Assembly (NCBI GenBank): GCA_025642075.2
Contig: JAODUO010000437.1
Location: forward strand, 284,001-348,000
Direction of reading: 5' to 3'
Source: Ridgeia piscesae
Taxonomy: Eukaryota > Annelida > Polychaeta > Sabellida > Siboglinidae
Length of the DNA: 64,000 bases
Positions 24,701 to 30,700 of this stretch are shown here, piece by piece (the first letter of the stretch is position 1; the number at the start of each line of letters is the position of its first letter). The position numbers and the translations under genes are program-made. A model generated the notes under the pieces. The model saw only the letters and a program-made list of their open reading frames with translations, did not search any database and was not told the origin of the DNA.

Positions 24701-27700
24701 CCTAGGATACTCACGCAAAGAAGTCGAGGAGTCGTTGTCACAGAACAAGTACGATGACATCACGGCGACGTACCTGTTACTGGGCCGGAGAACGAACGAG
24801 GTCAGTTTGTATTCTCGTGCCCTTGCCATGTACAGTCGTGTTTACTATCAACATCAGGCACAACATTTCCATTGATGACATCCGGAAGATGAGCCCTTTG
24901 AATTGTAGTTACATAACTATTCTTTTGAAAGGATAAAGAACATTATAAATGTTCAACCTCAGCTTTCTCTTTTTCTATGATAATTGTTAATAATACAGTT
25001 AAATCTGAAAATGTATGTATGTATTACAAAGTTATTGTGGAAATAAATGGGGAACCTCCAGAACTAATAAACCAGGTGGTGCCATTACACAACATGGGCC
25101 TGATGCCATCAACTGCCAGCGTCCTGTTACCTCGTGACACTGCATTCATTCATTATATCCAGCATTTGTTAACACACACTGTAGATATGCCTTACATTAA
25201 TAACAGTTGGAGTCTAAAAAAAATCAAAGATGAACTGAAAAAAGAAATAAACAGCACGTGCACATGCGTATAGAGTGCGATAATGTCACACATGCGAGTT
25301 GCATATCAACCGCCCTGCAGTCCTGTAGGGGGTTGATATCGGAACAAAACTATAGGAACTATACGATCCGAATTTGGGCTAGGCTCTCGTGCAGCAGTAA
25401 GCATTGACTGTTATTTGCCTTCAGCTGGAGAACAGTGACTCGCGGTCAAGCAGCAGTCTGTCCCTCAAGCAGATGCAGCTGCCACACCGACAGAACAGCG
25501 AACACAACGCCAACATGAACCAGACGCAGGCCCAGGTCCTGTCCAAGGTACAGCGCAGTGCCTCCGCTCACAACCAGAAGGTCATGCCTCACATGTACGG
25601 CACGTCGACAGAAAACAGCACGGGTGAGTTGGTTTCACTTGATCTACCTGTCCCTGTAGCCCTGATAAATTATTTCCGAGGGAGTTGTGTAGATTTTGGA
25701 GGTTGCTTACAATTAATCACTACATTTCTATTATGTTTGCAAGTTAAACATGTATGTTGATGACCTATGGACACGGAGCTGAATCTTGATTATGGGTTGG
25801 TGCACATTACCAAACCATAAACACATTAGTAAAATCAACGAATTCATTATGTATTGTTGAAAGTCAGCAGTTGCTCATTTGTGTCGAATCAGTGGCTTAA
25901 TCATATGTAAACTATTCGTTTATTATTCCCGTAGTTTATTCCTATTTCTGTCAATTCAAGTCAACCAGAAGTGGACTGGCACACTGTATCACTGCCAGAT
26001 GTATTGTGTTTATGGGTGGTTGAGTGTATGTTCCTAAGTATGTATGTGTGTATGTATATATGTATGTAAAACTATGTATATACAGTACTGCCAGAAAGTA
26101 CTGAGTCAATTTGAAATTCATTTTTGTACATTATTGTCTACCTATCAGGAAACAGCACTCCCAATTGTCAGTGAAATTTAATGTTTTGCCCTGTACAGGA
26201 TTACAAATGTATTATGCTTTTTACAAAACGTTAAATTTGATTGACAATTGGAAGTGCTGTTGCCTAGCAGATAGAAAATAATGTACAAAATGAATTTCAA
26301 AGTGATTGTACCAGTTATTTTCTGGCAGTACTGTATGTTTGTATCTGTAATGCGTGCTTGCGGCTACCTGGCTGGGTCCAATTGTTTATTCCATGCTTTT
26401 TTGTGTAAAGAACTGAACTAGCAAGGAACTGAGCTGTCTTATCATCGCTCTCACAGGTGGCGCCTACCAGAGCGCCCCGTACAAGAAGCGAGTTGACACG
26501 GCAACGAAGGAAAACACGATTCAGGGTCCACGCACTCAGTCAGGCGTAACTCCCACTCCCACAGCGGTACGACCTTTCAACTTACACATCTAAATATCCA
26601 CCCCGATTACATTACGTGCATGCTTTATTTGCTATTATAGCAGCTATCTAACTTATGCATTGTTTACGAATCTGCACAGCGACATTTTCAGGTAGTTAAT
26701 TGAAGAGTCATGTTTCGTTGTATTAACCTAGGTTTGGTGTATCCCTCAGCCTATAGTAATTGTCACGTCCATGTTGTAGTCGTGAATATTGTAGATTTTA
26801 CCCATTGTAGTTGAATACTGGTTGCGAATATCTCACAGCACGGATATAGCTAGATGTAGAAGTGATGATATAACACAGTTCATATGGCTTTAGAAGAAGT
26901 TATATTTATACATTTTAGGAATCCACTACAGGCAGAAAATACTGTTTAGTGAGTATCGTTTCCGTGTAACATCTTAAACATTCTCCATCATTACTGTGTA
27001 TCAACATTTCGAAGCCGGCAACATTTCGGCAACATTTTGTCAGTTGTATTTCCATTGGTGTATACCACCGTAAGGTGAAATTCCAAATTGTACAAAGGTT
27101 AAAGGTGAGAGGTTAAAGGTGACTAGTTGCAGGCGAGTGTAGATGAGCCATGTGAACTGTTGTGATTTCAGAGGCCACATCGTCTGCCTGGCCGCAACAG
27201 CGAAGTAAGTGTTGTCTGTGTGTCTCCACTAGCGTACACCTATCTATTGTCTCACCACTCCATCTCGCCCGTATTCCTGTACCTCTCACATTCTTGTCAC
27301 TCTGTACACCTGCTCAATGTTGTCTTCATAATGTCAATTCACGCACAATTCTAGAATAGCTTTATATCAAATTGATGAATTTTTGTACATCAGAATTTCA
27401 GTAAATTATACCATAGAATATTTAGAATAAATTTTTGTGGCTGGATGTTCCCTTTTTACCAGGCATCTGATGGATAGTTCAGTTGCCCATTGGATTTCTT
27501 TTCAAGATTGGAAGCTAAAGAAACTTTGAGTATTTTTGTTTAGGAGATAGTAAGCTATAGAAACGATTGAGTATTTTTATTTAGGAGATAGTAAGCTAAA
27601 GAAACGGTTCAGTATTTTTGTTTAGGAGATAGTAAGCTAAAGAAATGATTGAGAATTTTTCTTTTGAAAAAAGTGTTTTGTATCTGTGTAAAAATATGTG

Positions 27701-30700
27701 CTGTGTAGAAATCCCACACATGGGAACGGGAGGGTCCAATACAGACTTGTTTTGAAAAAATAAATTGAAATAGGGAAGACAAGTTTCCAAATATGGGTTG
27801 GACTCCCTGAGCCAGAGGCTTCCTTTCCATCCAAAGTTAATTCTCTGGGTTGTAGTATAATGAAATTGATTAAGATCACATGTATCGCCCATGAAGAAAT
27901 GTGAATAGACACGATATAAATTCTTTGTGGACCAGTGTCTGTTTTTAATACTGTGCAAATGCTTGTAATGTATTATCTTTGAAGAATTGTTACATCTGTA
28001 ACATAATATATTAGATTTGGAAAACAAATTCTCATCTGAAGACATGACTTTGAAATAATAATGTTGATAGTGGGGGTGGCTTGTTATGGGAGTAAGACAG
28101 TTTCATGTAGAAATGTATGGAGTGTGCAACCATTGACTCGGACAGCGACATTCTACTTTCAGCGACACAATGGCACTAGGAACTTCAGTAGTGACGTGAG
28201 TCAAAATACCAGTGCCTACCTCTTACAGTAGAACCATCACTGTAGTCGGTCCACTCACTCACTCTAGCCACTCACACTCTCGTCTCGTATACATGTAATG
28301 TAGACACAGCGAATCATCATCCAATACCCTCTGGGTCCTTTGGTGCACATCACATTCTCTCGGGTTATACTTGTCTAGCAGCCGCAGGAGAACCAGATTG
28401 TCTCCCGTCTACAACTGTAGCCACTGACACCACCTAATTCCTAACACAGTTAACTCACCAACTCACCAATTAATTAGCGGTACTGTAGGGTCACGTTGAC
28501 TAATTTAACTACTCAGTATTTAACCACGTTGGTAACCGGTTCTGTTGTTTTTGTGATTTTCTTTTCCACGTGAGTTTTTATTTCAATGTGAAAACCAGCA
28601 CCGTTATTTTTGACAGTGTTTGTTAAAAATTTGTAATGATTTGAATGCAATATTTAACATCATGTTATTAAGGTGGCACTATTTTGAAACAAAGGATTGT
28701 GCAATGTGTAGTAGAAATTTATGAGTAATATTTAAGATCATCACTCACATGCTGGTTTTCATTGGTCGTGTTTTGTTGTTCGTTTGTTTTATTTTATTTT
28801 ATTTTATTTTGAGTGTCTTGTTTTCAGAGGCCGAATCGTATGTCCGCTCGGAATGCAAGTAGTGAAGTAAGTTAGGATAACATGTCATTAGACTCACTCA
28901 CAGCCGATGTAAAATAGTGTTTATTTGTTATCTTCTTGCATTTCTTTGTCTTGTGTTCTGTATTCTCACCCCTGTGTTCTTATGATTTATGTCTAGTGTC
29001 AACCGCATCGAATGAATAAAATCAGTAAATGCATAACGTTAGATGTAGACATTGACAAACACATGACCATGCACACTGACCATGAAATCTGTAGAAGTTA
29101 ACGGAGCATGACACTAACGCCAGGCAACACTTTCATTTTCAGAGACCGAACCATCCTACTTCGGTTAGGAATTCGAGTGTTGAAGTAAGTCATGCCAATC
29201 CCCCGTCCCTCTGAAGGGACTGCTTTCTCTTCACGGAGGCAGTCTTTACAGTCACGTAGACCCTGTCCTTCAGTCTGTAGCACAATTACCAACTCCTTAC
29301 AGAAATATTTGGTGAACAGACTCCTCATAGTTTGCTATTAAACTTACAAATTTTTTAGATTACAGTAAGTGAGAGTGTTAGGTTAGCTTTTTGCAATAAG
29401 AATGGGGTCAAATCGCTGATACCTTAAATGTCACAGAACCTGTTTTACCCTGCGAAAAGATAATACTAACGACTACACATCCGAGTTCCACTCATTGGTG
29501 CTGTCTGCCTGTAGAAACATTTGCATTAATTGCTCCTAAATATGCATGCGAAGTCTAGGTGAACTTGCCCACTAGTAATCTCGTTGTTCGCCCAATGATG
29601 CTTTGTTTGTGTTTTGTTTTGCATGCGCCCTGTGTACGGGACGTTGTGTATTTTTGTTGACCCGCTAGCTACGAAGTCATTTTGTTTTCAGCGACAGAAT
29701 CGTATTGTGAGCAGGAACACCGAAGTAAGTTGAAAGCACGATGGGTGCTACCATCTGGCGCTCGGTAGCCTTGCCGCACATACTAACTGCACTGGTTGTC
29801 GTGACCATCATAAATCTGTACCAATCATACCTTCTACATATCACTGCCATGATTTCTAAGAGCCACATTCGTCTGCACAAAGACCAGTGCAATGAATGGC
29901 CTACGCAAAGGATTGTTATAATTTAACCCTGATGTTGTAGTGTCTGTATACTGACAAGTTAGTAACTAACCACAAGCCTGCAAGTACTACGAACAACTAA
30001 CTGTTACATCTGTCACTACGCCTAATTGTTACAGCATAGTAATAATAATTAATACCTTCTCTAACGACAAACTTCCTGCTTCATGCTTGTTCCCTGTTTG
30101 CACACGTGCATGTTTTAATTAAGACGTCGCCTGTACTTGAAAGTCAAAACCAGGCTCTTACTGATGGTGACCACATAATTTAGACTATTTTGATACTTAT
30201 AAGGGGTGCTTTTTATATGCCAAACGTATTTCCAAAAGCAAATTATCGTGGAGGGATTGTTTATGCTTGTATTTGGTAAGATTATGTGCTAGGTAATGCC
30301 ACGTGGTTATTTGAAATTCTTGTTTTATAAAGCGATGGTGTTTGATCATCAGCCAGGACTTGGCCAGCGTCACGGCTTTATGCAAGACCAAATTATTGCC
30401 AGTCACACATGTTTTGGTGGACACATGGATGTTAACTGTTAAGCCAGTTTACAAACTTTAAAATGTGTCTGATGACGTGAAATGGACTACAAACACACAT
30501 GTGACACCATTTATACTTACTTGTAAGGCAACTGACAATATCTATGGTTTTGGAACACCTTTTTTGCTCCTTCATTTTGTTACCCGTCCACCCATATTTC
30601 TACCCGTCCATAACAGTTTTTACCCGTTCAAATGACGGGTGGACGGGTCTCTGCATAAAGCTATGGTCAGCATAGTAATTTGTAACAGGAAGTTTGTTGT

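What the first reader, a model, noticed from the sequence alone, without database searches (positions are those of the whole stretch)
27172..29724. Cassette of five related microexons in the MARK spacer
Five exons of 33, 33, 39, 42 and 33 nt, all phase 0-0, share acceptor tttcag, donor gtaagt/gtgagt and a protein pattern R-(P/H/Q)-(N/H)...RN-x-(S/T)-x-(E/D). They look like tandem duplicates of one ancestral microexon related to the RRNT motif of the next exon (31296). Any subset stays in frame, so up to 32 combinations are possible, each changing the number of Arg-directed Ser/Thr sites in the disordered spacer. This is an unusual modular way to tune a kinase tail.
Basis: partly seen in the sequence, partly recalled or inferred. 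Interest (0 to 1): 0.9.

Follow-up and report, generated by a model that had tools for sequence, protein, structure and literature searches.

The report
Tandem microexon cassette in MARK kinase
In the gene for the cell-polarity kinase MARK of a likely segmented worm, five tiny related in-frame exons stand in a row, and they likely can be included or skipped, which would let splicing set how many positively charged, predicted phosphorylatable segments the kinase's linker carries.

Summary
Five phase-0 exons of 33, 33, 39, 42 and 33 nt lie in one intron of a MARK gene (27172-29724). A scan of all 64 kb, both strands, for TTTCAG + 24-60 nt open symmetric exon + GTRAGT returns exactly these five (mean 0.01 in Markov versions of this intron). 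Their peptides are alike beyond chance (0 of 20,000). The flanking introns show almost no residual similarity, while exon pairs keep 57-74% DNA identity and conserved Arg/Asn change codon silently: old duplicates held by selection on the peptide. New here: a relative's protein (P0001, 5.2-kb contig, so likely spliced cDNA) carries two such units at the corresponding place, and cassettes of unrelated sequence occupy it in molluscs; four species have records with and without. Pyrimidine- and YCAY-rich sequence follows the five exons taken together. The suggested kinship with the RRNT motif is not supported. Most likely mechanism: cassette splicing sets the number of short basic, Arg-directed Ser/Thr units ahead of the RRNT exon. 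Skipping of single units in this animal and any effect on the kinase are inferred. Novelty: new variant of a known kind.

The parts
26457..26566 (+). Spacer exon SP2, upstream anchor; ends in phase 0; its donor (GCG|gtacga) matches the consensus least of the 19 donors tabulated (5 of 9)
27172..27204 (+). Microexon m1, 33 nt, [11 protein letters not shown]
28163..28195 (+). Microexon m2, 33 nt, [11 protein letters not shown]
28828..28866 (+). Microexon m3, 39 nt, [13 protein letters not shown]
29143..29184 (+). Microexon m4, 42 nt, [14 protein letters not shown]
29692..29724 (+). Microexon m5, 33 nt, [11 protein letters not shown]
27211..27360 (+). YCAY/pyrimidine-rich intron stretch after m1 (8 YCAY in 150 nt; background mean 2.5); candidate splicing enhancer
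28202..28351 (+). YCAY/pyrimidine-rich intron stretch after m2 (9 YCAY in 150 nt)
28873..29022 (+). Intron stretch after m3 (4 YCAY in 150 nt, little above background)
29191..29340 (+). Intron stretch after m4 (3 YCAY in 150 nt, about background)
29731..29880 (+). Intron stretch after m5 (7 YCAY in 150 nt)
31296..31483 (+). Spacer exon SP3, downstream anchor; starts in phase 0 ([13 protein letters not shown]) and carries the conserved RRNTFGYGD motif

Best explanation
Five tandem-duplicated, phase-0 microexons in one intron of a MARK/PAR-1 kinase gene, at a place where molluscan relatives have records with and without a cassette, are likely spliced in variable numbers, so that splicing would set how many short basic, predicted phosphorylatable units (R-x-x-R...R-N-S/T-E/D) stand ahead of the RRNT-motif exon of the spacer. 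Shown: the exons, their frame, their paralogy, their retention while introns decayed, two such units in a relative's protein at the corresponding place, and records with and without an insert (of unrelated sequence) there in four mollusc species. Inferred: skipping of single units in this animal, YCAY/pyrimidine-rich downstream sequence as an inclusion enhancer (a Nova-like factor is one candidate), and the effect on the kinase. Proposed effect: each included unit adds net charge +1 to +2 and 1-2 Arg-directed Ser/Thr; phosphorylation would offset the charge, and so tune membrane or microtubule attachment and 14-3-3 binding of the spacer that precedes the KA1 domain.
For:: anatomy and statistics; exon pairs 57-74% identical while 50-nt flanks are near background (upstream 0.31 against 0.27 for other exons, downstream 0.27 against 0.27); no decayed sixth copy; conserved R, R and N use different synonymous codons; 32 distinct in-frame isoforms; charge 0 to +8, Arg-directed sites 0 to 8. 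P0001 reads GESPK-RQHRLVTRNSE-RKTRVQSRNSE-ISSSVSPGKSAIP; both units fit the window's five better than all of 5000 shuffles each; its contig is 5,182 nt although the corresponding coding region spans 31 kb here; of 48 relatives whose junction was parsed, 18 carry an insert there, 27 none, 3 unclear; both states in Mytilus galloprovincialis, M. edulis, Ostrea edulis, Pomacea canaliculata; 31 YCAY in 5 x 150 nt downstream against 12.5 expected (0 of 20,000 draws of five random windows; 5e-5 with 100 nt, 6.5e-4 with 200 nt); upstream not in excess. PMC12445529 (passages): YCAY clusters downstream of Ciona Agrin Z microexons are needed for Nova-driven inclusion. PMC7312799 (passages): the MARK spacer holds regulatory phosphosites; aPKC phosphorylation of MARK2 T595 gives 14-3-3 binding and redistribution from membranes.
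Against: No transcript of this animal was seen. P0001 includes both its units and no form without them was found, so constant inclusion is possible; P0001 also starts at an internal Met of the kinase domain, so its contig is not a clean full-length mRNA. Bivalve cassettes are not similar in sequence to these units (3391 and 3644 of 5000 shuffles) and Paralvinella's insert only weakly (668 of 5000; 328 for a trimmed cut), so beyond P0001 only the place is shared. Arg-directed sites are not a rule for the other inserts: Pomacea's first module has none and the 53-residue Lineus insert one. YCTY and YYCT are more enriched than YCAY (third of 384 patterns), base composition explains part (mononucleotide shuffle P 0.0012), m3 and m4 are no higher than the highest of the other exons of the gene, and YCAY was one of four motif classes tried after seeing the data. 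T595E MARK2 still reached the membrane in HeLa cells (PMC6597755, passages). The Ser/Thr after Arg-Asn are followed within a few residues by Glu/Asp, unlike RRNTF, so they are probably not aPKC sites of the same kind (inference).
Confidence: 0.6

Rival explanations
1. Constitutive repeat expansion: all five microexons are always included, giving a fixed 60-residue repeat insert; exon duplication lengthened the spacer but splicing does not choose.
For: P0001 carries both of its units in one protein; donors of the microexons match the consensus about as well as those of the other exons (6-7 of 9 bases against 5-8); frame is kept either way.
Against: The corresponding place holds an insert in some records and none in others of four mollusc species; three JGI relatives on short contigs have no unit there (P0002, P0003, P0006), though these may be other species; YCAY-rich downstream sequence is more marked than at 10 other exons of the gene for m1, m2 and m5.
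Confidence: 0.22
2. Mutually exclusive array: only one of the five units is chosen per transcript, as in classical tandem exon duplications.
For: [quoted passage not shown] this same gene has a pair of homologous exons that the frame would force to be exclusive (22722-22821 and 23244-23340).
Against: The frame does not enforce exclusion; P0001 has two units side by side; Pomacea's two modules are both in or both out in the four records seen (P0016 against P0019, P0024, P0043). The inverted-repeat list shows nothing that pairs all five, but no dedicated search for docking/selector pairing was made.
Confidence: 0.12
3. Unused look-alikes: chance or dead exons never spliced in.
For: No transcript of this animal in hand.
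Against: The only five strict candidates in 64 kb fall here; exons conserved while introns decayed; homologous units in a relative's protein.
Confidence: 0.03

Closest known systems
MARK/PAR-1 kinases of Lophotrochozoa with an insert at the same spacer place (Mytilus, Ostrea, Pomacea records)
   Same: Same gene family, same place ([DE]SPK | IS/IT...), in-frame presence or absence; four gastropod records also have two modules there, resembling each other in the three tested (Pomacea, Nucella, Biomphalaria)
   Different: Bivalves have one unit of 13-14 aa and gastropods two of about 35-40 aa, against the window's five of 11-14 aa; the bivalve units are not similar in sequence; their exon structure was not seen
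Tandem duplicated exon substitution events (mutually exclusive exons)
   Same: Neighbouring homologous exons of equal phase made by exon duplication
   Different: Typically two exons used one at a time (recalled); here five microexons in a spacer, two units seen together in a relative
Schistosome micro-exon genes (MEGs)
   Same: Very small symmetrical exons allowing many similar in-frame proteins (PMC4350168, passages)
   Different: In MEGs such exons make up most of the coding region and products are found in secretions and glands; here they are 5 of 20 mapped exons in a conserved kinase
Neural microexon programmes (Srrm3/4 eMIC; Nova-dependent Agrin Z exons)
   Same: Small in-frame exons; YCAY enrichment downstream, as at Ciona Agrin Z exons (PMC12445529, passages)
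   Different: UGC near the acceptor, reported for fly eMIC exons (PMC8797185, passages), in only 1 of 5; no tissue data

Membership tests
MARK/PAR-1 kinase | Protein kinase catalytic domain | tested here: met
   PF00069 E 3.7e-65, (from profile position 46; exons before 9654 were not found in the window)
MARK/PAR-1 kinase | UBA domain after the kinase domain | tested here: inconclusive
MARK/PAR-1 kinase | C-terminal KA1 domain | tested here: met
   PF02149 E 3.5e-19
MARK/PAR-1 kinase | Closest relatives are annotated MARKs | tested here: met
   188 proteins at E<=0.001, 120 listed; of those with a name most are called MARK or MAP/microtubule affinity-regulating kinase, some hypothetical or unnamed
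Tandem exon duplication | Neighbouring exons of same phase with homologous sequence | tested here: met
   0 of 20,000 in each of three nulls
Mutually exclusive exons | Only one copy per transcript | tested here: inconclusive
   Frame does not enforce it; P0001 carries two units; no transcript of this animal
Cassette microexon | Short symmetric exon in a phase-matched intron | tested here: met
   33-42 nt, within the <=51 nt definition, above the stricter <=27 or <=30 nt ones (abstracts listed)
Cassette microexon | Alternative inclusion observed | tested here: inconclusive
   Records with and without an insert at the corresponding place in four mollusc species, not in this animal
eMIC (Srrm3/4) neural microexon | UGC close to the 3' splice site | tested here: not met
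   1 of 5 microexons against 6 of 10 other exons
Nova-type regulated exon | YCAY clusters in the downstream intron | tested here: inconclusive
   31 against 12.5 expected for the five together; clear at m1, m2, m5, not at m3 and m4; other pyrimidine patterns equally enriched
Nova-type regulated exon | Nova binding and dependence | not testable with these tools
   needs experiment
Schistosome MEG | Most of the coding region made of tiny symmetric exons | tested here: not met
   5 microexons among 20 mapped exons

The most novel reading that the evidence does not exclude
One spacer junction of MARK/PAR-1 is an ancient splicing socket in Lophotrochozoa into which different lineages have independently plugged and multiplied exon modules; in this annelid lineage it became a five-step counter of basic phosphorylatable units, a digital dial for the kinase's attachment to membrane or microtubules.
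Probability: 0.3. Interest if true: 0.82.

Novelty: new variant of a known kind. Interest (0 to 1): 0.6.

Why it matters
If the five units are combined freely, one polarity kinase gene makes up to 32 proteins differing in dose of one short motif, which makes a clean natural experiment on how the number of charged phosphosites in a linker controls a kinase. The recurrence of repeated modules at one place in different phyla would let the question of why some exon junctions attract cassette exons be tested by comparison alone.

Tried and rejected
Kinship of the units with RRNTF of the next exon: rejected (2201 and 2655 of 5000 shuffles as good). Kinship with LPHRQNSE of exon SP1: a stretch there is the best match in the rest of the joined protein, but 49 of 5000 for a piece picked after looking and 377 of 5000 for a longer cut, so left as a lead. 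Bivalve cassettes as homologues of the units: not supported. The Lineus insert (R-D-R-R-L... R-E-R-R-L...) looks repeated, but three cuts of it against the window's units gave 328, 343 and 720 of 5000; left open. eMIC/UGC regulation: not supported. Further decayed copies in the intron: none (best other stretch 11.4, control region 14.2). Structure prediction of P0001 with 20 rows: mean pLDDT 38.7, most of the kinase domain below 50, so uninformative and not used for disorder; disorder of the spacer is assumed from general knowledge. A protein search with the window's residues 370-470 gave 40 candidates, none at E<=10; with P0001's residues 368-428 it gave P0001 itself and P0008. Paper searches in which I saw no description of such microexons in MARK: (open-licence PMC papers only; listings seen, capped at 20 of 604; the two papers that hold both terms were not opened).
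Full report
Gene and setting. The plus strand of the window carries a MARK/PAR-1 kinase gene; exons from the kinase domain (9654) to the stop after the KA1 domain (40793) were mapped by homology and splice sites, and the joined protein matches Pfam kinase and KA1 domains. Exons before 9654 were not found. The nearest proteins in the search with residues 225-520 are lophotrochozoan MARKs: unnamed JGI proteins, then Lineus, Capitella, Paralvinella, Owenia, Liolophura. The animal is therefore likely an annelid or a close relative; this is inferred, and the window's own genome could not be searched (eight requests unanswered).

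The observation. The five exons are at 27172-27204, 28163-28195, 28828-28866, 29143-29184 and 29692-29724, encoding [49 protein letters not shown] and [12 protein letters not shown] scan of all 64 kb on both strands for TTTCAG, an open multiple of three of 24-60 nt, and GTRAGT gives 5 candidates, and they are these 5; 300 Markov versions of this intron, plus strand, give 0.01 on average. With looser splice sites the window has 15 candidates. The peptides are alike beyond chance in three nulls of 20,000 draws: residue shuffles, fives from the 10 other loose candidates (a small pool), and random open stretches of the same lengths.

They are old duplicates under selection. Exon pairs keep 57-74% DNA identity over aligned bases, while the 50 nt beyond the splice sites are close to what unrelated exons of the gene show (upstream 0.31 against 0.27, downstream 0.27 against 0.27). 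The first Arg, the Arg-Asn pair and a final acid are kept in all five, yet the first Arg is AGG, CGA, AGG, AGA, CGA and the second CGC, AGG, CGG, AGG, AGG. That is retention of the amino acid, hence, by inference, of translation. No sixth, decayed copy was found in the intron.

They occur in a relative. P0001 reads GESPK, then RQHRLVTRNSE and RKTRVQSRNSE, then ISSSVSPGKSAIP. The downstream edge aligns to the start of exon SP3; the upstream edge is placed by position, since the end of SP2 is not well conserved. Both units fit the window's five better than all of 5000 shuffles, best to m5 and next to m1. Its contig is 5,182 bases long, although this coding region spans 31 kb in the window; a spliced transcript is the plain explanation (inference; a processed gene copy is not excluded, and its protein begins at an internal Met). 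Of the 120 listed proteins the unit pattern was found by regular expression in P0001 alone. Paralvinella (P0008) has one insert, VSARLARPQSRNNTE, only weakly similar (668 of 5000).

The place is a cassette site beyond annelids. Of the 120 proteins listed (188 hits) I could parse the junction in 48. The 72 not parsed are Lineus (2), Owenia, two sea spiders, Saccoglossus, Chanos (3) and otherwise ticks or unnamed sequences. By my reading, 18 of 48 carry an insert there, 27 none and 3 are unclear (Capitella P0007, Liolophura P0010 and P0011). Four species have both states among their records: Mytilus galloprovincialis (KSPFIRDSIKDHNK in 6, absent in 4), M. edulis (2 and 4), Ostrea edulis (RSPFVRESIKGQQ in 2, absent in 1) and Pomacea canaliculata (present in P0016, absent in P0019, P0024, P0043). 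Most are predicted isoforms. In gastropods the insert is two modules that resemble each other (Pomacea 0 of 5000, Nucella 1 of 5000, Biomphalaria 45 of 5000 shuffles; module ends chosen by eye). The bivalve inserts are not similar to the annelid units and the gastropod modules differ plainly in length and sequence, so the place is shared and common descent of the contents is not shown. Exon boundaries in these molluscs were not seen.

Splicing signals. Microexon donors match the consensus at 6-7 of 9 bases, other donors at 5-8; SP2's donor is the lowest. Downstream of the five exons YCAY occurs 31 times in 5 x 150 nt, 12.5 expected; none of 20,000 draws of five random windows reaches it (5e-5 with 100 nt, 6.5e-4 with 200 nt), and 0.0012 of shuffles of the same stretches do. 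Counted from the splice site, the five have 8, 9, 4, 4, 7 and 10 other exons of the gene 2-4, so m1, m2 and m5 stand out and m3 and m4 do not. YCTY and YYCT rank above YCAY, so 'pyrimidine-rich with YCAY' is the safe description, and YCAY was one of four motif classes tried. In Ciona, YCAY clusters downstream of Agrin Z exons are needed for Nova-driven inclusion (PMC12445529, passages). UGC near the acceptor, a feature of fly eMIC exons (PMC8797185, passages), is in 1 of 5.

What it would do. Each unit adds charge +1 to +2 and 1-2 Arg-directed Ser/Thr (R-x-S/T or R-x-x-S/T); five add +8 and 8 sites; 32 subsets give 32 proteins. The bivalve inserts add +2 and one such site each; of Pomacea's modules one has none and one has one. 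The spacer of MARKs carries regulatory phosphosites, and aPKC phosphorylation of T595 of MARK2 leads to 14-3-3 binding and redistribution from membranes (PMC7312799, passages), though T595E did not displace MARK2 in HeLa cells (PMC6597755, passages). That T595 is the Thr of the RRNT motif is recalled, not tested. On this basis I propose that unit number tunes electrostatic attachment and phosphorylation of the spacer. This last step is inference.

Verdict. A real, well-formed array of five tandem paralogous microexons in a conserved kinase; I saw no description of it in the paper searches made (listings). It is a new variant of known things: tandem exon duplication, cassette microexons and micro-exon genes. 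Interest is moderate to high; transcript evidence from this animal is the missing piece.

Noticed in passing
22722-22821 and 23244-23340: Two homologous exons of 100 and 97 nt at the kinase-UBA linker ([15 protein letters not shown]... and [15 protein letters not shown]...); both or neither would break the frame, so they should be mutually exclusive. Liolophura isoforms P0010 and P0011 differ at the same place in the same way.
   Followed up: partly
about 34151-34291: A further spacer exon ([39 protein letters not shown]...), 66% identical to P0001 and not in my joined model; P0010 lacks and P0011 has a counterpart.
   Followed up: partly
27505-27664: A 41-nt tandem repeat, 3.9 copies, in the m1-m2 intron.
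   Followed up: no
16454-18599: A 36/108-nt minisatellite, about 60 units of 36 nt, in a kinase-domain intron, open in several frames on both strands.
   Followed up: no
22154-22481: TGAC tetranucleotide repeat, 82 copies, ending about 240 nt before the first linker exon.
   Followed up: no
45165-45662: Minus-strand reading frame of a PAXX gene (DNA end joining), PF15384 E 2.6e-10.
   Followed up: yes
61132-64000: 38-nt satellite, about 76 copies, running to the end of the window.
   Followed up: no
P0004, P0005 (Lineus longissimus MARK): At the corresponding place a 53-residue insert with repeated R-[DE]-R-R-L-[IM]-x-[DE] units, perhaps another independent expansion.
   Followed up: partly
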